A stretch of 39,284 nucleotides of DNA from an uncultured Altererythrobacter sp. (GCA_913055595.1 CAJXLD010000002.1:1-39284); one strand, 5' to 3'; counted from the first letter of the stretch, positions 1,010-16,426 are shown. Numbers and translations are program-made. Notes: generated from the sequence alone by a model not told the origin.

Positions 1010-1831
1010 TTGAAATACGCGCTGCGTATCGTGGGCCTATTGGCTATTATTTTCGCTCTTTACATCATCGTTGGCGAGCAATTGGTGGGGTCCAGCAGCA
1101 ACGCCTATGTCAATACGCGCCTTGCTACCTTGCGCATGCCTTTGGATGGCACAATTCAGCTATCTACAGCGCCGGTCGGCGGCCGAATTTCTGCCGGCGA
1201 GGTCATCGGCGGTGCAACGCGGCGGCAAAACGACAACAGCGAAATCGCCTGGATTCTCGATGGTCGGCTTCAGGCCGCTGCCGATCTGCGAGCCTATGAG
1301 GCGGATCCCGAGATCTCCCCTGTGGTCCTTGATCAGGCACTTGAGCGTTTGAAGGCATACGAAGAGGCACGCGAGGCAATGCGTGGACAGCAAGTTGCCG
1401 CCAGCTCTACCGCACTGCGTTCGCCGGTCACAGGTGTAATCTGGAGCCTGGCCGCCCATAGCGGGGTGTATCTGCCCATGGGAGAGCCGTACGCGAGAAT
1501 CGCCGACTGCGAGGCGCTATTCGTTCACGCCACGGTCGATCAAAGGCTCTACAACCAGCTGCACCCGGGCGATGTCGCGCAGTTCCGATTTCATGATGGC
1601 GGCGTTGCGGAGATGACGGTCAGCCTGCTCGCCGGCACCGGGCCGCGAACAGTCTATGAAACGCTGGCGGTTAATCCAACCATCCGCCAACTCGAAGGCT
1701 ACGCGGTGTTCCTCGAGAGTGCGTTGCTGGACACTAGCGGCTCTTGCCCAATCGGCAAGACTGGCCGCGTGGTCTTCAGCGAAGGTCCAGCAAACTGGCT
1801 CGGTGAGCTTATCAGCGGGATTGGCCTCTAA
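1010..1831 (+). CDS. HlyD/Alg44-like membrane-fusion (periplasmic adaptor) protein
   Basis: N-terminal TM, then 'LRSPVTGVIWSLAAHSGVYLPMGEPYARIADCEALFVHATVDQRLYNQLHPGDVAQFRF' typical of HlyD-family barrel-sandwich/beta-barrel segments; overlaps the next gene start (TAATG). Confidence 0.75.
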   Translation: MKYALRIVGLLAIIFALYIIVGEQLVGSSSNAYVNTRLATLRMPLDGTIQLSTAPVGGRISAGEVIGGATRRQNDNSEIAWILDGRLQAAADLRAYEADPEISPVVLDQALERLKAYEEAREAMRGQQVAASSTALRSPVTGVIWSLAAHSGVYLPMGEPYARIADCEALFVHATVDQRLYNQLHPGDVAQFRFHDGGVAEMTVSLLAGTGPRTVYETLAVNPTIRQLEGYAVFLESALLDTSGSCPIGKTGRVVFSEGPANWLGELISGIGL

Positions 1832-3801
1832 TGCCAGTCCTGCCCGAATGGCTTGTTGTTCTTGCACCCAGCATCCTGCTGTTGGGTGTGGCTGTGAGTG
1901 TCTTGCCGTTCTTCCGCCGCGAATTTGCTCCGGTTCGCATAGTTGTCGCGATTGCCGCTATTGGGTTCAGTCTTCGCTATCTGTTCTGGCGCATGACGGA
2001 GACCTTGGCAGACCCCGGGTGGACACTCGATGCGTTCGCCAGTTGGTCGTTCTTTGCCATCGAGGCGGGCACGGTTGTTTCGAGCATTTCCGCCTTCATC
2101 CTTCTTTCGCGGCACCGTAACCGCACACCCGATGTCGACGCATTGTTGGCCAGCTCTACAGCACCTACGGAAGAAGCGGCCGTCTTCATTGCCACTTACA
2201 ATGAGGAATGGGCGGTCCTCGAGCGGACGATCATTGGTGCGATGGCTTGCGATCATCCCAACAAGACCATTTATGTTCTCGATGACGGCCGGCGTGAATG
2301 GCTGGCGGAGGCTTGCCGCAAGGCTGGGGTCATTCACATCACGCGGCCGGACAACCGGGATAGCAAGGCCGGCAACATCAACCATGCCCTTGGCATGCTA
2401 CGAGCCGGAGGTCGTCCGCCGGCCTTTGTCGCCGTATTGGATGCGGATTTCGTGCCCCATCGCGATTTTCTGCGACGAGGCCTAGCGCTGTTTGCAGATG
2501 AAAAGGTCGGATTGGTCCAGACGCCTCAGCACTTCTTTAATCCCGACCCTATCCAGCACAATCTGGGCATCAGCCGGTCCTATCCCGACGAGCAGCGCTT
2601 CTTTTTCGACTATATGCAGCCCTCGCGAGACGCCTGGGGGCTGGCCGTCTGCTGTGGCACCTCCTCGATCGTGCGCTGGGCTGCACTCGAGGAAATCGGC
2701 GACTTCCCAACCGCAAGCGTGACCGAAGACTATCTGTTAACCTCCACTCTCGCATTGCATGGATACTCCACGGTCTATCTCAATGAGCCTTTGAGCGAAG
2801 GCCTCGCACCAGAAGGCCTCAAGGAATACATCACGCAACGGGCACGCTGGTGTCTTGGGCTGATGCAAATCGTGCATAGCCGCGCCGGCCCATTCAGCCG
2901 CGAGAAGCTGCGCTGGCGGGACCGCTGGAGCATTCTGGATTCGGCAGCTTACTGGCTGACCACGTTCCCATTCCGTCTGGCCTGCATTCTGTTTCCGCTG
3001 CTCTACTGGTATTTCGGCGCCATCGTGGTGGACGCCAGAATGACCGACATCATCTACTATTTCTTGCCCTACTATCTGGCGACAATGATTTTCCTGAACT
3101 TCGTCTCGGTGGGCATGTTCGTCCCTATCGTCAACGACATCAGCCAATTGGTTGGCGCCTGGGATATCACCCGCGCCGCCGTAACCGGCTTGGTTAGGCC
3201 ACGGGGCCACGCATTCAAGGTAACCATGAAGGGCGGAGCCCGAGGGGGTATCGTCGTGCAATGGACCATCATGCGGCGCTTCATTCTTCTCTTTGCTTTG
3301 ACGGTGTTTGGGCTTTTGATCGGCCTGGTCTCAAATGAACTGTTTGATGCGCGCGCCGGAGAGGGGAAAGCGGTTATCCTGTTTTGGACCCTCTACAATC
3401 TCTTCGTTCTGGCCGGCACCATGCTGGTCTGCGTGGAACTACCCAGAACCTCTTCGATCCTCCGCATGCGGCCCGAACGCGTGCTTGTTAAAGCCGGCGA
3501 CCGAGAATGGAACACGTGGCTTGAAGACATCCATCACGAAGCTGTTCGCTTGCGCGGCTTGTCGCTACCCCTGGACACTGAATTCCAAATGAGCGTTGCC
3601 GGTGTGGGGCAATTCGGTGCGCGCGTCAGGCAGTCTCTTGGCGCAACGGTGGAGGCCGATATCTCGATGACCGCCGATCAGCGCGAACTTCTGGTTGAAA
3701 AGCTGCATACGCAAAGCGGAGCGCCTGGCACAGGTGCGGTGACAATGGCGGGTCTGGGGGCAGGAGTGCTCAGGCGCGTCATCGCGGGAACGATCCGATA
3801 G
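1831..3801 (+). CDS. family 2 glycosyltransferase, cellulose-synthase-like membrane protein
   Basis: Motifs DDGRR, DADF, TEDYLLT and QRARW (D,D,D,QxxRW) plus multiple C-terminal TM helices. Confidence 0.9.
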   Translation: MPVLPEWLVVLAPSILLLGVAVSVLPFFRREFAPVRIVVAIAAIGFSLRYLFWRMTETLADPGWTLDAFASWSFFAIEAGTVVSSISAFILLSRHRNRTPDVDALLASSTAPTEEAAVFIATYNEEWAVLERTIIGAMACDHPNKTIYVLDDGRREWLAEACRKAGVIHITRPDNRDSKAGNINHALGMLRAGGRPPAFVAVLDADFVPHRDFLRRGLALFADEKVGLVQTPQHFFNPDPIQHNLGISRSYPDEQRFFFDYMQPSRDAWGLAVCCGTSSIVRWAALEEIGDFPTASVTEDYLLTSTLALHGYSTVYLNEPLSEGLAPEGLKEYITQRARWCLGLMQIVHSRAGPFSREKLRWRDRWSILDSAAYWLTTFPFRLACILFPLLYWYFGAIVVDARMTDIIYYFLPYYLATMIFLNFVSVGMFVPIVNDISQLVGAWDITRAAVTGLVRPRGHAFKVTMKGGARGGIVVQWTIMRRFILLFALTVFGLLIGLVSNELFDARAGEGKAVILFWTLYNLFVLAGTMLVCVELPRTSSILRMRPERVLVKAGDREWNTWLEDIHHEAVRLRGLSLPLDTEFQMSVAGVGQFGARVRQSLGATVEADISMTADQRELLVEKLHTQSGAPGTGAVTMAGLGAGVLRRVIAGTIR

Positions 3802-3806
3802 CCAAG

Positions 3807-4886
3807 TCAGCGCCGGTCAGTGGCCCCATCCGACTGCAGGCGTGCGAGAACCTCTGATAGCGTCTGGACTTCCTTGAAGCGCCGGTGTTCGCGGACATAG
3901 TCGGTTGGCTCCCCCTTGACCTGCGCCAACAAAGCGCCAGCGATGCGGCGCAGGGGTCGGATAATGCCTCCCGAAATCAATGCGAAGGCTGTTGCGATAC
4001 ATACAGTAGCGAGCACAGCACCCAAGACCAGCTGCGTTTGGAAGCGCTTTTGGGGGCCAGAAAGCACGGTTGGATCGAGGCGCGCGACGAGGCTCCATCC
4101 AAATGAGGGGAGTGACGCGTAGGTCAGGTCCGGCACTGTGAAGGATTGGTACTCCAGCCCATCCGGCCAGGTTTCTTCAAACACTGCACGGACACCTCTT
4201 CGCGCGGCCAGAATGGAGTTCATGTCTGCTGTCCGCTCGTCAAAGGCTGCTGTGGAAAGAACGATCGTACCCTCACGGTTGACGATAAACACGTCGAGTT
4301 CGAGCAGTTGCGCAGCCTCCTCAACTAGCGTTCTCACCCAGCGCCAGTTTACATGTGCGCCGAGCACACCGATGACTTCGCCGTCCGCATTGCGGATTGG
4401 AGCGGAAAAATCGACAAAACGGAGCGGTTCATCGCCTTCCGACTGCATCAATCGAGCAAGAAGGACCGCTTCGTGCACGTCACCCGCGAACGGGGCGACC
4501 AGACCTTGTTGAAACCAAGGTCGTTGCGCAACATTTTCACCCCGCAGCATGCCTCGGCTACTGGCCAGAACCGTGCCATCTGCCGCGGCCACCCCAAGCC
4601 AAGACAACTTTTCGTCCGTGCTGCCCATGGAGTCTACACGTTGCTGCAGTGCATCGAAGTCGCGCAGGTCCCGGATGCTTGCCGCAGACCTTTCAATCCG
4701 CCCCCACTCTTCGTAGAGACTGCGCGTTAAAAAGGCTCCAAGCGCCTGCGATCTGATCCTGACGGCCGTTTCGGCAGTCTCCGATCGATAGGTGCTGAGG
4801 TTTGCTGCTGCCGCAAGGGTCAGAGCTGTAAGCGCCAGAGCCGACAATAGGCCGACGACTAGGGTAAGCAATGTGCGCAGCTGCAT
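3807..4886 (-). CDS. Cache-type sensor with C-terminal HAMP-like segment, no output domain
   Basis: N-terminal TM, extracytoplasmic region with 'WLGVAAADGTVLASSRGMLRGENVAQRPWFQQGL' and 'GVLGAHVNWRWVRTLVEEA', second TM, then HAMP-like 'IIRPLRRIAGALLAQVKG'; ORF extends to 5015 but MQLRTLL (4886) is the likely start. Confidence 0.7.
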   Translation of the reverse strand: MQLRTLLTLVVGLLSALALTALTLAAAANLSTYRSETAETAVRIRSQALGAFLTRSLYEEWGRIERSAASIRDLRDFDALQQRVDSMGSTDEKLSWLGVAAADGTVLASSRGMLRGENVAQRPWFQQGLVAPFAGDVHEAVLLARLMQSEGDEPLRFVDFSAPIRNADGEVIGVLGAHVNWRWVRTLVEEAAQLLELDVFIVNREGTIVLSTAAFDERTADMNSILAARRGVRAVFEETWPDGLEYQSFTVPDLTYASLPSFGWSLVARLDPTVLSGPQKRFQTQLVLGAVLATVCIATAFALISGGIIRPLRRIAGALLAQVKGEPTDYVREHRRFKEVQTLSEVLARLQSDGATDRR

Positions 4887-5170
4887 CGGCGATTCTCCTT
4901 CGACATCAAGGCAGTGTCTCAATCGAACCCGACAGGAAAAAGGGCGCAGACCTCGCTTGGTTAGGAAATGGTGAAGGGCATTTGGCGCGTCTGTTAGGCG
5001 CCCCATTCCGGCCATTCAGGCATGAAACGGCACTTCAATAAGCAGACATTTACGACAAGGCTTACTAACGTTGGTAGTCGCCAAGCATGGACCATGCAAT
5101 TCGCGACATCACGAAGAGGACATAGCTGCTAAGCAAGCCTCACGCGTACTGTCGCGTCACTAAGAGAGGA

Positions 5171-8100
5171 TCACCGACTGCGGTACTTTTCTTCTAGGGA
5201 CCGAAGCAAATCCATGGCCCCGGATTTATTCGCGAACTCTACCGTTCCCCACGTCGCCTTGAGAAGCTCGAAAAATTTCGGCAGGCTTTTCAAGTCGCTA
5301 TTAATCACTTCTTCGATCCTTCTTTCAAAGGCTGCTGGCGTAGTGAGAAGAAAGCGCTGACTAACAAGCACCTCTGTCCACCTCTCCACCATCCAATTTG
5401 CGGCCTTTTCTCCTAGCGCCCTCAATTCGTTCACCCCATCGAGCAACTGAACAACACTGAGCCCGAGTATCCAGATTTGCGCAGGGGTTAGTCGGCCCGT
5501 CCCTGATAGCTCCTCTTTTGCCGCAGTTAGCAAACTTGCCAACTGAGAGTTGAAACCATCATCTCCTTGGCCAGCGAGAAGAGTTAGACGAAAGTCTTTA
5601 TCGGCTGGGGGTAGGTCGGATTTGTTCAATCTCTCCAACGCGCCATCAAACGAATTGGCATTGCCCTCGAGGATACACGACGTCAGGAATGCGAGAAAGT
5701 AAAGCTGCCCCATACTTTCGACCGCAGGCCTAGAGTTTGGGTCTAGTGGCGGTATTCGCCCTTTCGTGGGATTGAGTGGATCGAAGGAGGCCGCAATTCC
5801 ACCCCTCGCCATCATATAGGCAAACCAGGCGAGTTGCCTTTGTAGAGAATCGAAGAACTTGATCTCATCCCCGTTTAATATTGCTCTAGTCAGCAGCGCA
5901 GGGATCAGCAGTGTCTGCCCCTCGATGCTCGTTCCATCAACTAAATCGTCCTCTATGGAGTCGGCGATGCCAACGTTAACGCCGCTTAGACATTCGACTT
6001 TTGCCAACATATATCGGCCCATGTCGACCGGGGATCTGGCATGCTCGCCAATATCTTTGTGCGGGTCGGGATTGCTTACACAGCCGGGATAAATCTCAGG
6101 CGGCTGTCCATTCGCGACGGCTCGCCGGTCTCCGGTGACCTCCTGGTCAAGCCAAAGCAGAATGTGATGGCCCACTGCTCTGCAGTGCGCCGCCCTAAGC
6201 GATGATTTTGGGTCAACTGTTTCTAGCTCTGCAAGGAATGCAGACAAGTTGGTCAAGCAGGTCGCTCTATCGCCATTGTGCCAAGCCGCAAGGGCCGCAT
6301 CGGCCCCGAGTCCTACGGCCATCGGCCTCATATCGGGCAGCAGAGATTCGAAGGCGGCGTTGCGCGCATACAGATAGTAAGTGCGTGCGGTTTCAAAGTC
6401 GCCCTGCTTTTCAGCACTTATGGCGGCATCTCGCCCCAGGAACGCCCTTTCAACAGAACTTGTGATTTCGTTCTGTTCGATGAGATTTTTCGAGAGACTT
6501 AAGCTGTCAAAGTGCTCTCCAGCTCGGTAATGCACCTTTGCTTTAGCTCGAACCAGCTCAGAGTTCGTTTCTCCGTAAAGTCTGAAGCCTTCTTCGAGAA
6601 TGGCAAGGGCCCTTTCTCGATCTTGTCCGTACTCATCCGCGATGACGGCTGCAAATTTCCTGCAAGCTGCTGGGATAGAAGGTACTCCCCAACCTGACGC
6701 CTCCTTTTCCAAATCGAGTAGCAGTTCAACATGCTTATCTGCACGAATGGTACCTGCCGCGTGCTCCGCAAGCCACGCTCCCCGGATGATCATATCCGGT
6801 TCGAACTCGGTATGAGCTAATGGCTGCAATAAATCGGCCCGCAGTGTCGGCGAACACATAGACAGGAACGAGAAGATAGAACGAAGTTGGTCAAGCTCCC
6901 CGATGCCTTGTACCTGCATGAAGAATGCGAGGCCTATGACAGTGACACCTCCTGGCCTTAGAAAATCAGTATCCGCCTCCCCTTCTTTTGCCATAAGCTC
7001 TTCCGTAGCTGGCAATAGGTCAGCCAACCTCTTGAGAATGTTTTCAAATTGGGGAATCGAGGTTTTGGAACCAGAACCATCGGCAAGGAGCTTAACGTAA
7101 ACTAGGGCTTCAAGTGACTTGGTTCCTAACGTGTCGCCAAGCTCGCCGATGTCTCGAACTATTGCATCGAACAGTTGAGGAATGGCCGCAAGGTCACCTC
7201 TTCCCTTTGCAAGTAGTAGCTGAGCGCCTCGAATGATGGCGTTGACCTGTCCAGATTCAGGCCAAATTACTTCGTCGGTACGCAAGTATTGCAGGGCCAT
7301 CATATGGTTGGATAATAGCGGCAACTCCTTTTCAGACGAGGTGATAACGGCCAACGCAATCTTCGTCATCACGCCGCTGTTGCGTGAGATGAGCGCAGAC
7401 ACAGCCGCCGTGCTTATTGCTCTCACGTCGAAGGTGCGCCCTCGGGTAAGATGGACAGCAATCGAGGAATGGACATCCCGCTGCCGATCTGCACTTAGTG
7501 AATTGTGCCCTAGTCCAGACAGAAGCGGCGACAATTGAAAGTGGGTGGCATCCACTTGGTCAACCCACGGACCAACCAGATCATCTAGCACCAATCCCGC
7601 TTGCGCTATTGGCGGCGGGGTGTCGGCAATGGCCAACACAGAGGCTCGATCAAACGCACCCGCGTAAAGCGACAACCGCTCCAAGAGAGACAAAGACGCC
7701 GGAGCAAGCTCACGTAGCAGGCGTTTACGGCTATCTACACGCACCTCTTCCACGGCTGGATTGTTTCCCAACAGCTTCTGAAGGTCGGCGAAATCACCAA
7801 GGGGCCAACCGCGTGTTCGCAGATTCCTGACCAGTGCCTCCGAGAGTTGCGGATGGCCACCGCCAGATCCTGTATACACGTACTTAGTCCAGATAAGCGG
7901 GTCACCGCCTTGTGCAGATATCAGTTCAGCAATTTCCGTCTCATCGAAGGTGGGCACGACGATTGAGCTCTCGGCCTCTATTCCAATGGCAAAAGCTACC
8001 TTGGATGGAGGAGGGGTGGATGCTGTGAAGATGAGCAGAACATCAAGGCGATTAGCGGCGCTGGCCAATAGCTGCAACGCATCCAACGTATCCTGCTCTC

Positions 8101-9250
8101 TGACCGCATCTAGGTCATCAACGACCAGGCCATCGATCCCCGATGCGGAAAGAGTGTTAGAGGCCAGCTCGAGTGAACTCGCCGTTTGTCCCTCATTGAA
8201 GTTCCGGAGGCTGATCGCTGCCCACTTACCGCCGCACCGGTTAGCGACGAGACGAGACAACATGGTTTTGCCCATGCCGGTTGCCGCTGAGAGCCAAAGA
8301 GCGCCCTTCACCCCGAGGATGCTTAGGCCTCGCTCTGCTATTGCTCCCCTAGGAAGGACGTTTGGCGGCAGGTCAGGAATGACTCGCAATGTTTTATCGT
8401 CACTGACAGAGACACCGCCGCCCAAGTAGCCGAGGGCCTTGCTGAGTAGACGCTCGTAATCGTCCTGCCGCACGGTGACGTGAGTAACTTGTTCGATGAG
8501 CTTATTGAAATCGAGAACAGTTAAAACACGCTGGCCGAGAGCCGCGCTTGTCTCCAGCAGTTTCCGCAGCACCAGAGCCTCAAAAGCGTCTAGTTGAGTT
8601 AGGCGCCCGCCATTTTCCTGAAGCACTCGACCTAATGCGTTGGATAGATCACGACGGAGGACCTCACTCGACGGTTCACCGCAATCAAAGTGTATTCGTC
8701 GCAGTACCTTCGTACGAAACTCACGGTCACTAAGCTCAGCTATTGCGTCCTTTGTCGCCTTGGATACCCCTGAGCGAGCTAGTACTGCGCGGAGCTCAGA
8801 GAGATCGCCAGATTTTGCCAAGGAGCGCCAGGCTTTAAGGGTCGGCTGCCCACCTACGCGATCCTCAATTCTCCGTTCTAGTCCTATGTCGGAGGTCGTC
8901 AGGAAACGTACATGCACCTCACTCTTGGAATTCGCGTCTGCAAGTTGAAAAAGAGATTCAATCGCTTTGACGACACCACTATCGTTTATCGTGATATTTG
9001 CTGCTGTGCGCTTCACTTGCACGCCAGTCAGCACCGATTCCGCTAGAGTCGCATAGTCTTCCGCGACCTCAAGAAACAGAAGGTGGTCCCCTTTGAGATC
9101 AACCCAAGCAAATGCACTCTGGTACAACTGATATATGTAGCCGCCAAGTGCGTCGATGGCCTCGCGAGATTGGTCACCCACTATCCGGCGTTTGTCTTCG
9201 ATCAAACCACCAGGCTCCCTCTCAGCTGGAAAGAACCCTGTGAGGTTCAT
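5171..9250 (-). CDS. DUF4297/Cap4-like nuclease - P-loop NTPase - helical repeat protein (AVAST/STAND-like defence candidate)
   Basis: 1359 aa; N-term 'GGYIYQLYQSAFAWVDLKGDHLLFLEVAEDYA...GVQVKRTAANITINDSGVVKAIESLFQL' (PD-(D/E)xK-like E..ED..QVK); Walker A 'AATGMGKT', Walker B 'GLVVDDLDAV'; C-term helical, TPR-like. Confidence 0.75.
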   Translation of the reverse strand: MNLTGFFPAEREPGGLIEDKRRIVGDQSREAIDALGGYIYQLYQSAFAWVDLKGDHLLFLEVAEDYATLAESVLTGVQVKRTAANITINDSGVVKAIESLFQLADANSKSEVHVRFLTTSDIGLERRIEDRVGGQPTLKAWRSLAKSGDLSELRAVLARSGVSKATKDAIAELSDREFRTKVLRRIHFDCGEPSSEVLRRDLSNALGRVLQENGGRLTQLDAFEALVLRKLLETSAALGQRVLTVLDFNKLIEQVTHVTVRQDDYERLLSKALGYLGGGVSVSDDKTLRVIPDLPPNVLPRGAIAERGLSILGVKGALWLSAATGMGKTMLSRLVANRCGGKWAAISLRNFNEGQTASSLELASNTLSASGIDGLVVDDLDAVREQDTLDALQLLASAANRLDVLLIFTASTPPPSKVAFAIGIEAESSIVVPTFDETEIAELISAQGGDPLIWTKYVYTGSGGGHPQLSEALVRNLRTRGWPLGDFADLQKLLGNNPAVEEVRVDSRKRLLRELAPASLSLLERLSLYAGAFDRASVLAIADTPPPIAQAGLVLDDLVGPWVDQVDATHFQLSPLLSGLGHNSLSADRQRDVHSSIAVHLTRGRTFDVRAISTAAVSALISRNSGVMTKIALAVITSSEKELPLLSNHMMALQYLRTDEVIWPESGQVNAIIRGAQLLLAKGRGDLAAIPQLFDAIVRDIGELGDTLGTKSLEALVYVKLLADGSGSKTSIPQFENILKRLADLLPATEELMAKEGEADTDFLRPGGVTVIGLAFFMQVQGIGELDQLRSIFSFLSMCSPTLRADLLQPLAHTEFEPDMIIRGAWLAEHAAGTIRADKHVELLLDLEKEASGWGVPSIPAACRKFAAVIADEYGQDRERALAILEEGFRLYGETNSELVRAKAKVHYRAGEHFDSLSLSKNLIEQNEITSSVERAFLGRDAAISAEKQGDFETARTYYLYARNAAFESLLPDMRPMAVGLGADAALAAWHNGDRATCLTNLSAFLAELETVDPKSSLRAAHCRAVGHHILLWLDQEVTGDRRAVANGQPPEIYPGCVSNPDPHKDIGEHARSPVDMGRYMLAKVECLSGVNVGIADSIEDDLVDGTSIEGQTLLIPALLTRAILNGDEIKFFDSLQRQLAWFAYMMARGGIAASFDPLNPTKGRIPPLDPNSRPAVESMGQLYFLAFLTSCILEGNANSFDGALERLNKSDLPPADKDFRLTLLAGQGDDGFNSQLASLLTAAKEELSGTGRLTPAQIWILGLSVVQLLDGVNELRALGEKAANWMVERWTEVLVSQRFLLTTPAAFERRIEEVINSDLKSLPKFFELLKATWGTVEFANKSGAMDLLRSLEEKYRSR

Positions 9251-9827
9251 GATCGACAGTTGCGCAATCCCTGAAGCAGACTGCTACTGATCCATACCGA
9301 ACAAATTATAAGACACAAGCATGTTGATCCATCCGAAATGCCAGGATGACGGCAATCATCATTGGCGCGCCCAGAGGGCGCTACTGGGCCCACCTTCTCT
9401 CTCAAACATCTGACACACCTTCGGCGGCATGTTTGGCCCTGTGCCTTCGGTCACGCTTAGTCAGGCCTGTTCCACCTTCGCATGGTTCTAAGAACAGCGG
9501 TCCATCACCGACTCATTCAATGAGGTCTGATTTTGGCCCCAGACGAACATTAATCGGCTTCCCGGGCAATGGCTGCTTCCATGGTGCGGCGACTCAAACC
9601 TGCCATTCCGCAAGCGGCCCCCTTATGGTCATTAGCCGAGCTCGGTGGAAAGGCAGATTAGGGGCCGTTTCCCGACCGTCCAGTTTTGGACGACGAGAGC
9701 CAAAAGCCGCCGTTACAGTCACGCGATGTTACCGGCCCCTCACGATTGCATTTTGGTCATGTTAAGTGCCTAGCTTGGAAAGCGAACATCTGCGTCGTTT
9801 CGGGCCCAGAAGCCGGCACCGAGGCGA

Positions 9828-10739
9828 TCATACTTCCCGGAAAGACGCCGCATTTGCCTGTGCGGTGATGTCTAGCGCCGACAGCCCTGCGCCCACCGCC
9901 AGCTTGTACTCCGTCGCGATATCGGTCGAAAAGAACGAAGGGTCGTCTGTTCCAAGCACCATAACGCATCCTGCCGCGGCCAATCGAGCAATCGGATGCT
10001 CGCCGATCGAGGGATATAGATTAAGGGCGAGATTGCTCGTCAAACACAACTCGAGCGGCACTTTTTCCGAAGCCAGTTGACGAGTCACCGATTCCGATTC
10101 GACTGCTCGGATCCCATGCCCCACGCGTTCCAAACCAAGCGCCTCAATCGCCTCGATTATGGTATCCGGCCCGAGATGCTCTCCGGCATGGGCCGTCGCC
10201 CGCAGCCCCTCTGATCGAGCGATACGGAACGCTTCCTTAAAATCGCTTGCAGCGAACATCCGCTCATCACCAGTTAGGCCGAAGCCGACGAGTATGTCGT
10301 CTCGACGACCAGCCGCTATTGTCGCCGCTTGTATGGCGGCCTCAGGTCCTAAATGCCGAACTGCCGTGGCGATCATTCGGCAATCGATGCCGTGGGATTC
10401 CAGCGCGCGACCACGCGCGGCAGACAGGGCCGCGAGCTGATCATCGAAGGCTACGCCCACACGCATCAAGTCGGGCGGCGAAAGCATGAACTCGACGTAG
10501 GTCGTGCCAAGTTGTGCGGACCTAGAAAGATAGTCATAAGCGACTTCCTCGAGGTCTCGAGCGGTAACGACGACCGACGCGATATGGTCGTATACCCGTA
10601 GGAAGGAGGTGAAGTCGTGCCACCCATATCCTTTCGTCGACCAAAGGACAGCGTCGAGGCTCATCGAATTCCTTTCGGCAAGTATACGGGCCATCGTCGG
10701 GGTGATGGTGCCACGTAGGTGCACGTGCAGATCGATCAT
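9828..10739 (-). CDS. adenosine deaminase family protein (KomA-like)
   Basis: Motifs IDLHVHLRGT (HxH), TAHAGEH, RVGHG, CLTSN, LGTDDPSFF; ATG at 10739 (ORF track uses GTG at 10745). Confidence 0.9.
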   Translation of the reverse strand: MIDLHVHLRGTITPTMARILAERNSMSLDAVLWSTKGYGWHDFTSFLRVYDHIASVVVTARDLEEVAYDYLSRSAQLGTTYVEFMLSPPDLMRVGVAFDDQLAALSAARGRALESHGIDCRMIATAVRHLGPEAAIQAATIAAGRRDDILVGFGLTGDERMFAASDFKEAFRIARSEGLRATAHAGEHLGPDTIIEAIEALGLERVGHGIRAVESESVTRQLASEKVPLELCLTSNLALNLYPSIGEHPIARLAAAGCVMVLGTDDPSFFSTDIATEYKLAVGAGLSALDITAQANAASFREV

Positions 10740-10808
10740 CGACACTTTCTTTTCGAATATGTAACGGTGGCAAAAGGTTGTCGGCGTGATCCCGCGCGGA
10801 GTTTGGAC

Positions 10809-11357
10809 ATGCGTGTCAGATTTCTATCCAGGAACGAACACAAGATCGCAGAGGCGTCCACTATTTTAAAGTCCGTGGGCGTGGAACTCGTCGCCGTACA
10901 CCTTCCGCTCGACGAACTGCAGTCCGACGATGTGCAGGCTATCGTGCGCAACAAGACGCTGCGGGCCTTCCGCCTTCTGGGTCAACCCGTGTTCGTAGAA
11001 CAGACGTGCCTATTCCTCACGGAACTGAACGGTTTCCCGGGAGGCCTCACGCAGGTGTTTTGGGACACTCTGCAAAAAGAACGGGTTGCGCGCCTGTTCG
11101 GGGGCGGATCGGTGACGGCTAAAACCCAGATCGGGTATTGTAACGGACAGCAGATATTCCACTTCGAAGGCGCCATCGACGGTACCATCGCTCCGGAACC
11201 TCGAGGTGATGACAGTTTCCAATGGGACTGCGTATTCATCCCGCAGGGACATGATCAGACATTCGCAGAAATGGGCGAGAAAAAGAACGAAATTTCGATG
11301 AGGAAACGAGCGTTGGACGCGTTCGCCGCTCACCTAGAGGGTAGCGGGCATGATTGA
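10809..11357 (+). CDS. HAM1/ITPA-like non-canonical purine NTP pyrophosphatase family protein, probably non-catalytic (KomB-like)
   Basis: Starts MRVRFLSRNEHKIAEA; 'PVFVEQTCLFLTELNGFPGG', 'FQWDCVFIPQGHDQTFAEMGEKKNEISMRKRALDAF' align by eye to ITPA motifs VEDTCL, FGWDPCFQPDGYEQTYAEM..KN..SHRFRAL; ORF track start 10719 is too far upstream. Confidence 0.85.
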   Translation: MRVRFLSRNEHKIAEASTILKSVGVELVAVHLPLDELQSDDVQAIVRNKTLRAFRLLGQPVFVEQTCLFLTELNGFPGGLTQVFWDTLQKERVARLFGGGSVTAKTQIGYCNGQQIFHFEGAIDGTIAPEPRGDDSFQWDCVFIPQGHDQTFAEMGEKKNEISMRKRALDAFAAHLEGSGHD

Positions 11358-12165
11358 CGAGCTCGCGGATCTGGTCTCTCGAAAGAAAGTCGTTTTGTTC
11401 GCCGGAGCGGGGCTGTCGGTTCCCTTGGGTCTGCCGAGCTGGTCAAGTCTGATCGGCCACATGGCGAGCGAACTCGGCTACGATCCCGAAGTCCTGGTGC
11501 CGGAGGGCGCCGACCATCTGCAGATCGCCGAGTTCTATAAACTGGAACGCAGTAGCATCGGCGAACTCCGTAGCTGGATGGATCGGAGCTGGCACGTTCC
11601 CGACGATCGCCTGCTGCAGTCGCGTATACACGATCAAATTGTCGAACTCGACTTTCCGCTAATCTACACGACCAACTACGATCGGAACCTCGAGCGCATT
11701 CATGAACTCAAAGGCAAGCGTTTCAGCAAGATCAAGTCGGTGCTCGACGTCGCCAACGCACTGCCCGACGCTACACAGATCGTCAAGTTCCACGGGGATT
11801 TCGACGATGACGACTCTCTGGTAGTAACTGAGTCCGATTATTTCGAGCGGCTACAATTCGAAGCTCCGCTTGACATCAAGTTTCGAGCCGACGTTTTGAG
11901 CCGCAGCATACTGTTCGTCGGCTACAGTTTGAACGATCTAAACATGCGCCTGCTTCTATATCGGCTCCACAAAATGTGGGAGAAAGCCGGCTTCGTGGCG
12001 CAACGGCCTCCTTGCTTCATATTTCTGCTACGGCCGGACCCCGTTCGCGAGCGGGTATTGGCAAGCCGCGGCATCCATCCGATCGTTTCGGACTCTCTAA
12101 ATCCCAGCACAGCGCTGGAAGAGATGTTTGACAAGCTCCTCTCCGCTCGAGGTAAATTGGCTTGA
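11350..12165 (+). CDS. SIR2-like NADase-family protein (KomC-like)
   Basis: Motifs VVLFAGAGLSVPLGLPSW, YTTNYD, VKFHGD, ILFVGYSLNDLNMR; start overlaps the upstream HAM1 gene by 8 bp. Confidence 0.9.
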   Translation: MIDELADLVSRKKVVLFAGAGLSVPLGLPSWSSLIGHMASELGYDPEVLVPEGADHLQIAEFYKLERSSIGELRSWMDRSWHVPDDRLLQSRIHDQIVELDFPLIYTTNYDRNLERIHELKGKRFSKIKSVLDVANALPDATQIVKFHGDFDDDDSLVVTESDYFERLQFEAPLDIKFRADVLSRSILFVGYSLNDLNMRLLLYRLHKMWEKAGFVAQRPPCFIFLLRPDPVRERVLASRGIHPIVSDSLNPSTALEEMFDKLLSARGKLA

Positions 12166-12402: not shown

Positions 12403-13905
12403 CTAGATGTAGAAGCGATAAGACGATTTCGGAGTCGCATTATCCGACAGCTCGCTCATCAGCTCGCCGACCCGTCGCGCGAACAACAGTGTAATCGGAA
12501 GGCGCGAAATCCCTTCGCTCGAATTCCAGTTCATCTTAGTAAGGGTAAGAATCTCCTTCGAGCGTTCCCGCATGTCGCTTGGGGCAGCGCTGCCGATCTC
12601 GAGCGGGGCCGGGATGTGCATGCCCGGATACTCGTTCCACCAAGGCACATAGCCCGCGGTGAAGAGGTAGGCCTGGTCGGCGAGCGTGCAAAGCGTCCCG
12701 CGCCAAGGCTCTTCGAGGCCCTTGCGTACCATCCGAAAAGAAGTCGAGCGTAACCACACGCAATCGACGGTCGCAACGCGATCCTTCGTTGCCTTCTTGA
12801 AGCCTGCGACTTCTTCTTCCTGAAACCCGCTTGTTTTGTGGATCACCACGCGGTCGGGCATGACGCCCGCGCGGTCGAAATACTGGTTCAGTACGTCTTC
12901 AAGGAGGCCGCTGGCCTGCGCTTCGTTGAGATAGGGTTGGCGGTCGATGCGCTGATCATGATCGATATTCGCGCCTTTCAACGCGAAGGGCTGCACATCC
13001 GTCGAATACGCTTGCGCCACACTGGCGTAGACAAGGTGGCCACTGCGACGCTTCATGTGGTGGAAGGATACGCCGACGAAGCACACATTCTTTGGCAGGT
13101 CCGTGGGGCGCCACGGAATGCCGCGAGCCTTATAGTACAGCGATGTCGAGAAATTCCAGAAGCGCGTTGCAAAGCTTTGGCCTTTGTCATCCGGCCGATC
13201 AACCGTATCCCGTCGGAGGATTTGGATCGGCACCGCCTCATCATGCGTCATCGTCTTCGCTTTGATGGCACGATAGAATGTGCGAAAGAGCAGATCGTCC
13301 GCCATTGTGTAGAGCGCTTCAGCGGCTTTGAGCTCATCGGGCGAGGGCTGGAAGAGGGCTAGCTGATCGCTTTCTTCTTCCGCACGGAGCACCTCAAGCG
13401 CCTTCCGCTCTTCGGGTGTCAATCCGGGGTTCGCGACGCGAAGATCGCCAAGTTCGGGCTTGATGCAGACGACGACACAATCAGGGGCTTCATCCCCAAA
13501 GAGGCTACTGATGCGTCCATCGAACAACTCGACCAGCTCGTTGAAAGACCTTCCAGTCAGGGCGTCCCTGAACAATGCGTTGTATATCGCGGGCTCGATC
13601 GGCCGGATAACCGCGTCATCGATCACGAATTCGCAATTCAACGCTGCCTTGAGCCCGGGCCAGTCGCGAAAGCGGTGCGAGTTGTTCTCATACGCCGGGG
13701 CGAAGGCACCTATACGCTTGATCCACGCATGGCTTGCCTCAATGTCCTCGGGAAGACCGACAAGTCCGACACGGATGCGGCGAAGGCCATGATTGTCCGC
13801 AGGGCCGTTTTCGGCAAGGCCGCGGCGCGGATCGACATGGCGCCCCGCGTTTGCGAACTCGATATACGGCTCAGGCAGAACGTCGATTTTGAGTGGCAAT
13901 GCCAT
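12403..13905 (-). CDS. short prokaryotic Argonaute (MID-PIWI only)
   Basis: 'KNVCFVGVSFHHMKRR', 'PDRVVIHKTSGF', 'RGTLCTLADQAYLFTAGYVP', 'LTKMNWNSSEGISRLPITLLFARRVGELMSEL', terminal 'SYRFYI'; strong SD AAGGAGG before ATG at 13905; no N/PAZ domains. Confidence 0.9.
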   Translation of the reverse strand: MALPLKIDVLPEPYIEFANAGRHVDPRRGLAENGPADNHGLRRIRVGLVGLPEDIEASHAWIKRIGAFAPAYENNSHRFRDWPGLKAALNCEFVIDDAVIRPIEPAIYNALFRDALTGRSFNELVELFDGRISSLFGDEAPDCVVVCIKPELGDLRVANPGLTPEERKALEVLRAEEESDQLALFQPSPDELKAAEALYTMADDLLFRTFYRAIKAKTMTHDEAVPIQILRRDTVDRPDDKGQSFATRFWNFSTSLYYKARGIPWRPTDLPKNVCFVGVSFHHMKRRSGHLVYASVAQAYSTDVQPFALKGANIDHDQRIDRQPYLNEAQASGLLEDVLNQYFDRAGVMPDRVVIHKTSGFQEEEVAGFKKATKDRVATVDCVWLRSTSFRMVRKGLEEPWRGTLCTLADQAYLFTAGYVPWWNEYPGMHIPAPLEIGSAAPSDMRERSKEILTLTKMNWNSSEGISRLPITLLFARRVGELMSELSDNATPKSSYRFYI

Positions 13906-16426
13906 TGGACAGTCCTCCTTCCTGAACGTCGGTTGTGAAAAATCCTCCTTCAAGCAAAAGATCGTCAACGTGGCGACCACCAATGTTGATGGTCTGCGAA
14001 CCTTGGGACAGGAAGCGCCCCCAAAAAACGAGGTCGCTCTCTACATTGGCGTTGCGATCGAATTTGATGCGCCGTGTGGCTTTGCTCGTCCGCATGTACC
14101 CCGGGAGCGGTGAGACACCGTCACGCTTGGCGAACATATAGAATGGCTTGATGCGAACGCCCCACAGATTCGCCTGCCGGACGACCTCATAGCCAAACCC
14201 CTCGCATTCGAACCAGGTTTTATGGCCTTCGCCGCGTCGCTTGACGACATCGCGCCGGACCCCTTTGCGGTTCGGGGTGTCGTAGATTATCGGACGGTTG
14301 TTTCCCTTGAGGGCGGTGAAATACGCGCGGCGTGCGGGCCGCCCTTTCTTGTCCTTCTCAATCACCAAGCCAACACCTTCGAACTGCTTGAGATAGTTTT
14401 CGAAGTGCTTGCGAGTCAGCCAGGAAAACTTGGCGTGAAGAACCTTGTCCGTCTCCACCTCGGCCAGCGGGATCGTGCGGGCCGGTCCCTTCGCAACCGG
14501 GCCGAACAGAGAGTTGACTAACACCTCCGGCATGAATGTCCAAAGATCGCCGGAACGGCCTTCGAACAGGAAGGTGCTTACTTCGCTCAACGGGACTTTG
14601 CGCTCAATCTCGCTCCAGCTTGAGACATTGATTTCAACGTGCGTCATCTGATCGGGAATTGCTGCGAAGGGCAGGAGGTTGATGACATAAGTGCCCATTG
14701 GCCGCGTGTCGCGCCCTACGCTGGTCGATCCGGCAGACGCTTCAAGCCGGAAAAGCTCACCCACGAAACTGTCTTCGCCCGGCGGGTAAGCGAAGTTTGC
14801 CGCACCGCCCTGCTGCGTTGAGAGATCGCGAGCGTCGATCAAGCCGGTGCCGGCTCGTTCCATCGCGCTTATACCGAAGAACACGTCACACAAAGCGCGG
14901 TTACGAAGATCACTAAACTCGGGGACAGGCTCAAAGCCACCGTCTGGCCCCAAGGTGAGGTGGGTCGTTGATTGGGGTAGCGGCGTTGCCGGGTTGATGA
15001 AGCGCAGCGCATGGTTTGGAATGACGTCTACATGCGACGGCTTTGGTATCGCGTAGTCGCGGTGCACAATCATGTTGGTCAGCAGTTCGGAGACAGCACG
15101 TTCCGGATAAGGCGTCCGCATTTCGTGTTGCCGCTTGCCTTTGACCTTGATCGGTGCGTTGACTGCCTCTTGCTCGAACCATTCCAGCAGGGCGGTATGC
15201 TGGCTGAGCAGATTGCCATCGAAGATGCGGCGCTTCTTGCCAGCCACCGTGGCGGCGATGATGGCTTGAGGAAAAAATCGCTTAGGCTCTCGCCCAAATA
15301 ACAAAATGCAGGCGGCACTGGGGCGCTCGCCGTTCGCGGTTTGCACGAGCAATCCAAGCTCGCGCATCAGCGGTTGCAGTTTTTGGGAGTCGAGAGAGCC
15401 GCGCTTTAGCTTAGTGCAGTAGTTTCGCAGCGTCGTAAGGGCGAGATCCCCATCAACGTCGCCCCAAGTTGCTTCCGCCACCGGCTGATCGTCGAACTGC
15501 GGGCGCGTCTCAATTGGCTGCGGTGCGAAGCGTTGGACGCCGGCAAGGTTACGATTGAGGTCAGACAACAGCTCGTCGAACCCGTTGATGTCGAGATACT
15601 GGAAGTTGCCCCCGAGTCGCATCGCAAGGCGCTCAACGTTCGGGTGCGGCTCGTCGCCTGCGCGTTTGCACCAATAGATGCCGTGGCGGAACGGGATGTT
15701 GGTTCTCTCGCCAAGCAGCGATTCCATGATGGACGGCTCAGCGCCACGATAGCCGACGACGATAAGTGGCGTTGCTTCCAAAAGCGGCGTTAGCTTCTGG
15801 ACGAGCGTAGGATCTAGAGCCTGCGTCTCACTGATGAGATTGCGGTCCGTGTATTGCTCGGCCTTGCCGTGTAGCCAGACGATCTGTGCACGGGCGAAGA
15901 GCGAGAACTCATTGAAGTCGTTCGGGCTGCGGTTCACTTCCGCGACGTGTCGGATGTGTGGCTGCTTGTCATGCAGCGCCTTGGGAAGACAGATATCGAA
16001 ATTGGTCGTGAGGATCGTACCGGCGAGACCGCGCAGGACGAGCTCAGCTATAGCACGATATCCGTCGCCGAGCTCTTGGCGGAGCGCGATGAGCTCAAGC
16101 AAGGTCGCCCGCCGATAGGCTTCCGGCTTTAGTAAGTGCTCGATGACAAGGGGAAAGTTTTCCGCCAGCCGTGCATCATCGTCGATAAACCATTGCTGCC
16201 TCTGAAGCCACGCCATCCATTCGGATAACTTGATCTGCTCGGGCAGCGTCTTTCCGCCAAGGACGCGGTCGCAATAGGCTTGCTTAGCAAGTCGCCTGAC
16301 ACTCTCGGCAGCGAGCGGGATACCGGAGGAGAACGAAGCACCGGCGCCAAACAGGAAAGTCGGCCGGGCGTCATTGTCCGGTTGGAGAAGCGAGGAGAGA
16401 AGCGAAACGCTGGCTGCGTGCGGCAT
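13871..16426 (-). CDS. SIR2 - RecG/HATPase_c_4-like - APAZ protein (SPARSA-like effector partner of short pAgo)
   Basis: 851 aa; N-term SIR2 (FLFGAGASFSSGIPLA, TTNFD, WLHGKA, VVGYRGAEPSI); middle 'YPERAVSELLTNMIVHRDYAIPKPSHVDVIPNHALRFINPATPLP'; C-term APAZ-like 'GVRIKPFYMFAKRDGVSPLPGYMRTSKATRRIKFDRNANVESDLVFWGRFLSQGSQTINIGG'; overlaps pAgo start by 35 nt. Confidence 0.9.
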   Translation of the reverse strand: MPHAASVSLLSSLLQPDNDARPTFLFGAGASFSSGIPLAAESVRRLAKQAYCDRVLGGKTLPEQIKLSEWMAWLQRQQWFIDDDARLAENFPLVIEHLLKPEAYRRATLLELIALRQELGDGYRAIAELVLRGLAGTILTTNFDICLPKALHDKQPHIRHVAEVNRSPNDFNEFSLFARAQIVWLHGKAEQYTDRNLISETQALDPTLVQKLTPLLEATPLIVVGYRGAEPSIMESLLGERTNIPFRHGIYWCKRAGDEPHPNVERLAMRLGGNFQYLDINGFDELLSDLNRNLAGVQRFAPQPIETRPQFDDQPVAEATWGDVDGDLALTTLRNYCTKLKRGSLDSQKLQPLMRELGLLVQTANGERPSAACILLFGREPKRFFPQAIIAATVAGKKRRIFDGNLLSQHTALLEWFEQEAVNAPIKVKGKRQHEMRTPYPERAVSELLTNMIVHRDYAIPKPSHVDVIPNHALRFINPATPLPQSTTHLTLGPDGGFEPVPEFSDLRNRALCDVFFGISAMERAGTGLIDARDLSTQQGGAANFAYPPGEDSFVGELFRLEASAGSTSVGRDTRPMGTYVINLLPFAAIPDQMTHVEINVSSWSEIERKVPLSEVSTFLFEGRSGDLWTFMPEVLVNSLFGPVAKGPARTIPLAEVETDKVLHAKFSWLTRKHFENYLKQFEGVGLVIEKDKKGRPARRAYFTALKGNNRPIIYDTPNRKGVRRDVVKRRGEGHKTWFECEGFGYEVVRQANLWGVRIKPFYMFAKRDGVSPLPGYMRTSKATRRIKFDRNANVESDLVFWGRFLSQGSQTINIGGRHVDDLLLEGGFFTTDVQEGGLSNGIATQNRRSA

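What the first reader, a model, noticed from the sequence alone, without database searches (positions are those of the whole stretch)
5171..9250. Giant single-gene nuclease-NTPase-helical repeat protein, AVAST/STAND-like
N-terminal Cap4/DUF4297-like nuclease signature (GYIYQLYQ..LEVAEDYA..QVKRT), Walker A AATGMGKT and Walker B LVVDDLDAV, then about 700 aa of helical repeat. This matches the effector-NTPase-sensor logic of Avs proteins, where the C-terminal solenoid recognises a phage protein. The sensor half is not recognisable to me, so the trigger could be new.
Basis: partly seen in the sequence, partly recalled or inferred. Interest (0 to 1): 0.72.

Follow-up and report, generated by a model that had tools for sequence, protein, structure and literature searches.

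The report
Nuclease-NTPase-TPR phage-sensor-like protein
A single large bacterial gene in a cluster of virus-defence genes encodes a DNA-cutting domain, an ATP-driven switch and a long helical 'sensor' arm, the same layout as known bacterial immune receptors, but it belongs to a sequence family that no searched library of defence proteins models as a whole.

Summary
Window 5171-9250 (minus) is one intact 1359-aa ORF with about 17 relatives, roughly a dozen of them full length (25-39% identity), patchily spread over Alpha-/Betaproteobacteria, a Nitrospira MAG and others, often on plasmids beside defence genes and integrases. N-terminus: a DUF4297/Cap4/LmuA-type PD-(D/E)xK nuclease (PADLOC LmuA 4e-12; family profile hits solved DUF4297 nucleases at 4e-6; E61, D65, Q78 and K80 align with theirs). 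Middle: a P-loop NTPase with Walker A, a DD Walker B, a GxP-type GHPQ motif and a winged-helix-like block that fits STAND; HMM scores alone do not separate STAND from AAA+. C-terminus: about 700 aa of TPR-like solenoid, recognisable by structure prediction. Neighbours in the window are a Kongming-like gene set and a SIR2-APAZ/short-Argonaute pair: a defence island. Best reading: a single-gene, NLR-like abortive-infection receptor with a DNA-cutting effector. It works like Avs3/Avs5 but matches no Avs model searched here; it is not Lamassu either (no LmuB). The trigger is unknown. New member of a known kind; moderate interest. The island as a whole and a conserved PGxxSNPxP loop in the solenoid are the most useful additions.

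The parts
5171..9250 (-). Whole gene, 1359 aa, single-gene nuclease-NTPase-solenoid protein
   Evidence: ORF call; full-length relatives
8501..9166 (-). N-terminal DUF4297/Cap4/LmuA-type PD-(D/E)xK nuclease domain, residues about 29-250
   Evidence: PADLOC LmuA 4.3e-12 over residues 29-256; family profile to solved DUF4297 chains 8xav 4e-6, 8ziq 4e-5
9128..9142 (-). GYxYQ signature, residues 37-41
   Evidence: G, Y, Y and Q invariant in 13 of 13 nuclease domains
9056..9070 (-). Acidic active-site residues E61 and D65
   Evidence: Invariant in alignments A1 and A3; aligned with E and D of the solved DUF4297 nuclease 8xav
9011..9019 (-). QxK motif Q78-V79-K80, predicted catalytic lysine
   Evidence: Q nearly invariant; K in most relatives, R in L007, L009, L011 and L020; aligned with QCK of 8xav
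7901..8368 (-). P-loop NTPase core, residues about 295-450
   Evidence: AAA_16 in 7 of 13 members, nSTAND3 in 6 of 13; alternating strand-helix core with pLDDT about 65-88
8264..8287 (-). Walker A AATGMGKT, residues 322-329
8114..8128 (-). Walker B LVVDD, residues 375-379
   Evidence: D379 invariant, D378 nearly so
8018..8026 (-). Sensor-1-like T-A-S, residues 409-411
   Evidence: [TN]-x-[SYAH] on the strand after Walker B in the family alignment
7847..7858 (-). GxP-type motif GHPQ, residues 465-468
   Evidence: G465, P467, Q468 invariant in 13 of 13; weaker in the most distant members
7451..7753 (-). Winged-helix-like block, residues about 500-600, ending L..L.GPW[VI]...[RF].[RL]SPLL
   Evidence: Conserved block; hhalign with a MalT-like STAND protein continues through it
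5174..7333 (-). C-terminal TPR-like alpha solenoid, residues about 640-1359, proposed sensor
   Evidence: All-helical model; TPR proteins among fold matches; TPR families match individual members
6281..6640 (-). Most conserved stretch of the solenoid, residues 871-990
   Evidence: Up to 86% identity to the three closest relatives
6062..6091 (-). Conserved non-helical loop YPGCVSNPDP in the solenoid, residues 1054-1063
   Evidence: PGxxSNPxP kept in most relatives; in the non-helical gap of the model
5471..5740 (-). Fast-diverging solenoid stretch, residues 1171-1260, candidate specificity region
   Evidence: 13-18% identity even to the closest relatives

Best explanation
It is a single-gene, NLR-like immune receptor. 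In the resting state the TPR-like solenoid (residues about 640-1359) would hold the NTPase switch closed. When the solenoid binds a phage-made molecule, most likely a protein, the STAND-type NTPase (295-600) would exchange or hold ATP and the protein would oligomerise. That would bring the N-terminal PD-(D/E)xK nuclease domains (29-250) together so that they cut double-stranded DNA, of phage or host or both, and the infection is aborted. Shown here: intact gene, nuclease-family assignment with the active-site residues kept, P-loop NTPase with STAND-type motifs, helical solenoid (predicted), defence-island setting, patchy spread. Inferred from Avs and DUF4297 systems: ligand-induced oligomerisation, dsDNA cutting, abortive outcome. 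Not known: the ligand.
For: Nuclease: LmuA 4.3e-12, DUF4297 model 0.014; LmuA in 10 and DUF4297 in 9 of 13 family members, best 4.6e-17 and 4.8e-7; family profile to solved DUF4297 nucleases 8xav 4e-6 and 8ziq 4e-5, with E61, D65, Q78 and K80 in register. The DUF4297 nuclease of the HerA complex is a dsDNA nuclease that needs its PD-(D/E)xK residues (PMC11291478). NTPase: Walker A, DD Walker B, GHPQ and a winged-helix-like block conserved over 13 diverse members; hhalign with a MalT-like STAND protein covers P-loop through the winged-helix block (257 columns, E 2.2e-5). Sensor: confident helical solenoid, TPR fold matches, TPR families in members. Setting: Kongming-like and SIR2-APAZ/pAgo genes in the same window; relatives beside Qat, CBASS, SIR2, HEPN, type III R-M and integrase genes. 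No shared partner gene, so it probably acts alone. Trees of the three parts give the same main groups, so the parts travel together.
Against: No functional test. STAND rather than another AAA+ clade rests on motifs and domain order: a Cdc48-like AAA+ control scores as well as or better than the STAND templates over the P-loop core, fold search of a poor model returns p97, and the nSTAND3 profile matches nearly every genome at E about 1e-4. The model of the nuclease half is unusable. Some relatives have R in place of the catalytic K.
Confidence: 0.72

Rival explanations
1. A defence NTPase-nuclease of the broader AAA+ kind that is not a STAND switch: the NTPase works as a motor or ring and the solenoid binds DNA or a host partner, as in HerA-DUF4297 or Lamassu.
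For: Pfam AAA is the best single Pfam hit of the window protein (0.0013); profile hits to Cdc48/p97; fold matches to p97; Cdc48-like control E 3.7e-7 in hhalign. The nuclease is nearest to those of Lamassu and HerA-DUF4297.
Against: The alignment with Cdc48 is poor after the sensor-1 strand, where the family has its invariant GHPQ and winged-helix-like block. No LmuB or HerA neighbour in the window. A long C-terminal TPR solenoid after the NTPase is the STAND arrangement.
Confidence: 0.15
2. A defence protein that senses infected-cell damage or a host process rather than a phage protein, with the solenoid acting as a scaffold for a host partner.
For: The best conserved solenoid part (871-990, 1054-1063) is shared by relatives in different phyla, as expected if it contacts something conserved, which could be a host factor or the protein's own other domains.
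Against: The end of the solenoid diverges fastest (1171-1260), as in receptors tracking a changing ligand; the Avs types with known triggers sense phage proteins (PMC12931631).
Confidence: 0.1
3. Not an anti-phage protein: a plasmid- or element-borne gene for competition between mobile elements, which cuts DNA of rival plasmids.
For: Many relatives are on plasmids and near integrases.
Against: The window copy sits among two NAD-depleting anti-phage gene sets; element-borne anti-phage genes are ordinary.
Confidence: 0.08

Closest known systems
Avs1-Avs4 (AVAST), in particular Avs3 with a Cap4 nuclease
   Same: N-terminal nuclease, central STAND NTPase, long C-terminal helical sensor in one polypeptide; acts as a single protein
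   Different: No Avs HMM matches; profile comparison with Avs2 aligns the P-loop core only; Walker B is DDL here; ligand unknown. Avs3 itself was not compared directly.
Avs5 (SIR2-nSTAND3-TPR)
   Same: nSTAND3-like NTPase followed by TPR-type repeats (PMC12931631)
   Different: Effector is a PD-(D/E)xK nuclease, not SIR2; no PADLOC or NCBIfam Avs model matched; the nSTAND3 match is weak and not specific
Lamassu LmuA
   Same: Closest nuclease model (PADLOC LmuA PDLC03848, 4.3e-12)
   Different: Only the first about 230 residues match; no LmuB (SMC-like) gene among the neighbours scanned; own NTPase and sensor in the same chain
HerA-DUF4297
   Same: Nuclease-domain homology with the same active-site residues
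   Different: Two-gene system with a HerA hexamer; here no HerA and a fused STAND-type NTPase with a TPR solenoid
Bacterial STAND conflict systems described by Aravind and co-workers (PMC7159879, PMC8195603)
   Same: Effector + STAND NTPase + superstructure-forming repeats
   Different: The passages read list REase-fold effectors but DUF4297 occurs in neither text (and Cap4 not in PMC7159879)

Membership tests
DUF4297/Cap4-type PD-(D/E)xK nucleases | Significant profile match to the domain | tested here: met
   LmuA 4.3e-12; family profile to solved DUF4297 nucleases 4e-6. The Pfam Cap4 model alone is below its cut-off in the window protein (0.062; 0.0042 for the domain alone)
DUF4297/Cap4-type PD-(D/E)xK nucleases | Conserved acidic residues and QxK | tested here: met
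   E61, D65, Q78, K80
DUF4297/Cap4-type PD-(D/E)xK nucleases | DNA cleavage | not testable with these tools
   Needs purified protein
STAND NTPases | P-loop with Walker A and hhhhDD Walker B | tested here: met
STAND NTPases | GxP motif followed by a winged-helix domain | tested here: inconclusive
   GHPQ kept in 13 full-length members and a conserved block after it; fold not confirmed, model pLDDT below 50 over most of it; in the MalT-like alignment GHPQ falls in a gap
STAND NTPases | Profile match that separates STAND from other P-loop NTPases | tested here: inconclusive
   nSTAND3 in 6 of 13 members, best 2.8e-4, but that profile rings in 189 of 191 genomes; an AAA+ control scores as well or better
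STAND NTPases | C-terminal superstructure-forming repeats | tested here: met
   TPR-like solenoid
AVAST (Avs1-Avs5) | Match to a curated Avs family model | tested here: not met
   No Avs model in PADLOC or NCBIfam at E up to 10; none over the 13 members in PADLOC; Avs2 and Avs4 models find nothing in this genome
AVAST (Avs1-Avs5) | Activation by a phage protein | not testable with these tools
   Needs co-expression
Lamassu | LmuB (SMC-like ATPase) encoded next to LmuA | tested here: not met
   Neighbours are a dCache protein and an adenosine deaminase; no LmuB hit among the neighbours scanned
HerA-DUF4297 | Adjacent HerA gene | tested here: not met
   No HerA among the neighbours scanned

The most novel reading that the evidence does not exclude
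A separate, unnamed type of nuclease-armed STAND receptor whose TPR solenoid, through the conserved PGxxSNPxP loop and the 871-990 core, recognises a phage component different from the terminase, portal, Ksap1 and JADA proteins sensed by the known Avs types.
Probability: 0.35. Interest if true: 0.6.

Novelty: new member of a known kind. Interest (0 to 1): 0.4.

Why it matters
If it works as proposed, it is one more independent bacterial immune receptor built like animal and plant NLR proteins, with a different sensor. It suggests that the LmuA/DUF4297 nuclease is used as a plug-in effector across unrelated switches. The relatives from several phyla and the conserved solenoid loop give a ready set for finding the trigger.

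Tried and rejected
Search of viral contigs for relatives: the search machine gave no answer four times, so viral carriage is untested there; the phage collection had none. Structure prediction of nuclease plus NTPase with four sequences failed (mean pLDDT 50), so its fold matches are not used as evidence for AAA+ over STAND. An effector swap in relative L005 looked possible because it aligned only from residue 297, but its reading frame is open at the 5' end of the locus, so its N-terminus may simply be cut off. Membership in nSTAND3 by HMM was set aside after the control showed matches in nearly every genome. Lamassu and HerA-DUF4297 were rejected for lack of their partner genes. PDB sequence search with the single protein found nothing; the family profile was needed.

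Full report
Observation. The ORF at 5171-9250 on the minus strand is real, 1359 aa and free of stops. The coordinates are right except that the start codon is uncertain: no clear ribosome-binding site precedes the ATG, and conservation begins at about residue 25-31. The G+C content falls from about 0.59 to 0.53 over this gene, which fits acquired DNA.

Relatives. Three relatives at 37-39% identity over nearly the full length were found in genomes (Maritimibacter alkaliphilus, Roseovarius confluentis and a Nitrospira MAG). Seventeen plasmids gave matches, eight of them over at least 80% of the length (Paraburkholderia, Bradyrhizobium, Agrobacterium, Ciceribacter, Rhizobium, Caulobacter). None was found in phage records. 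Of 387 genomes of the same class, one other genome had a long relative, so the spread is patchy, as for defence genes. The two genomes of the same genus in that sample had none. Trees of nuclease, NTPase and solenoid made separately give the same main groups, so within this family the three parts have stayed together; the solenoid changes fastest. More distant proteins share only parts. In Rhizobium leguminosarum the nuclease-NTPase chain (770 aa) is followed by an overlapping 576-aa gene. In Burkholderia contaminans the nuclease is joined to a region without the P-loop. In Aulosira the protein begins at the NTPase.

Nuclease. PADLOC LmuA matches residues 29-256 at 4.3e-12, with the DUF4297 model at 0.014. 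Over the family, LmuA matches 10 and DUF4297 matches 9 of 13 members, and Pfam Cap4_nuclease matches 7 of 13 nuclease domains, best 1.8e-5. A profile of 13 nuclease domains finds solved DUF4297 nucleases as its best hits (8xav 4e-6, 8ziq 4e-5, 9c1m 0.003), with E61, D65, Q78 and K80 on the E, D, Q and K of 8xav. The DUF4297 nuclease in the HerA complex cuts dsDNA and depends on its PD-(D/E)xK residues (PMC11291478). Four relatives carry R in place of K80, so activity should not be assumed for every member; the window copy has K.

NTPase. Walker A, a DD Walker B, a T/N-x-S sensor-1-like strand end, a conserved G-H-P-Q and a block ending GPW[VI]...[RF].[RL]SPLL are kept across the family. The order and spacing are those of STAND proteins, where a GxP motif and a winged helix follow the P-loop core (from general knowledge of the STAND class). 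Comparison by hhalign with a MalT-like protein runs from the P-loop to the end of that block (257 columns, E 2.2e-5), although GHPQ itself falls in a gap there. A Cdc48-like AAA+ control has a better E-value (3.7e-7), but its alignment is poor after the sensor-1 strand. nSTAND3 matches 6 of 13 members, but this profile matches 189 of 191 genomes at the same level, so it is not specific. STAND is therefore the better reading on motifs and architecture, not proven by scores.

Sensor. The model of residues 440-1359 is all-helical, with pLDDT about 80-93 over much of 780-1270. Its fold matches are mainly TPR and other helical-repeat proteins at weak E-values, and TPR families match individual relatives. 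Two features stand out: a core at 871-990 with up to 86% identity to the closest relatives, and a non-helical loop with PGxxSNPxP (1054-1063) conserved in most relatives. The stretch 1171-1260 is only 13-18% identical even to the closest relatives. I infer that the core and loop contact something constant and that the end of the solenoid may carry specificity.

Surroundings. Next to the gene lie an adenosine deaminase (9828-10745, minus), a Ham1-type pyrophosphatase (10719-11357, plus) and a SIR2 protein (11350-12165, plus). This is the gene set of the Kongming system, in which KomA helps make dITP and KomB-KomC destroys NAD+ (PMC12774641; that the three genes are ADA, Ham1 and SIR2 is from my own knowledge). 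Then follow a short pAgo (12403-13983, PADLOC 7e-140) and a SIR2-APAZ-type protein (13871-16426, 1.9e-139), as in SPARSA. Relatives lie beside Qat, CBASS, SIR2, HEPN and type III R-M with an integrase. On Agrobacterium plasmids the neighbourhood repeatedly contains the same kinds of integrase and RHE_PE00001-family genes with different cargo. No partner gene is shared, so it is probably a single-gene system.

Comparison with known systems. It works like Avs proteins (effector, STAND switch, sensor; PMC12931631). Its NTPase plus TPR arrangement resembles Avs5, and its effector resembles the Cap4 type of Avs3. It is not filed as AVAST because no Avs model matched and the comparison with two Avs2 proteins aligned the P-loop region only, at 15% probability. 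Avs1, Avs3, Avs4 and Avs5 were not compared profile to profile. It is not Lamassu or HerA-DUF4297 for lack of LmuB or HerA. Two surveys of STAND conflict systems do not mention DUF4297, but I cannot say whether this exact combination has been listed elsewhere; preprints and many subscription papers were not searchable.

Verdict. A well-supported architecture, a likely mechanism by analogy and an unknown trigger: a new member of a known kind, of moderate interest.

Noticed in passing
window 9828-12165: Adenosine deaminase (minus), Ham1-type pyrophosphatase and SIR2 protein (plus), the gene set of the Kongming defence system, with the deaminase gene divergent from the other two.
   Followed up: partly
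window 12403-16426: Short class I pAgo (PADLOC 7e-140) with a SIR2-APAZ-type partner of 851 aa (1.9e-139), a SPARSA-like pair.
   Followed up: partly
window 1010-3801: HlyD-type protein followed by a cellulose-synthase-like glycosyltransferase 2, next to a dCache protein at 3807-5015.
   Followed up: no
L016 (Rhizobium leguminosarum pRLTp73_3) 7986-12025: Nuclease-NTPase chain of 770 aa followed by an overlapping 576-aa gene of unknown fold, possibly the sensor as a separate protein.
   Followed up: partly
L014 (Burkholderia contaminans plasmid) 7974-9818: Related nuclease domain fused to a different C-terminal region without the P-loop.
   Followed up: partly
L025 (G621:C14): Another large protein with a Cap4-like N-terminus (GFRYQ, Pfam 0.0034) and a STAND-like NTPase (nSTAND1 4e-4), only distantly related.
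   Followed up: partly
L002 (Roseovarius confluentis) 6143-7588: Trypsin-like protease gene just upstream of the relative; not seen in the other loci examined.
   Followed up: no
G733:C22:37490-38341 (L022) and G549:C6:3890602-3891330 (L023): C-terminal solenoid pieces only, the first with stops: likely remnants of this gene, or solo solenoid genes.
   Followed up: no
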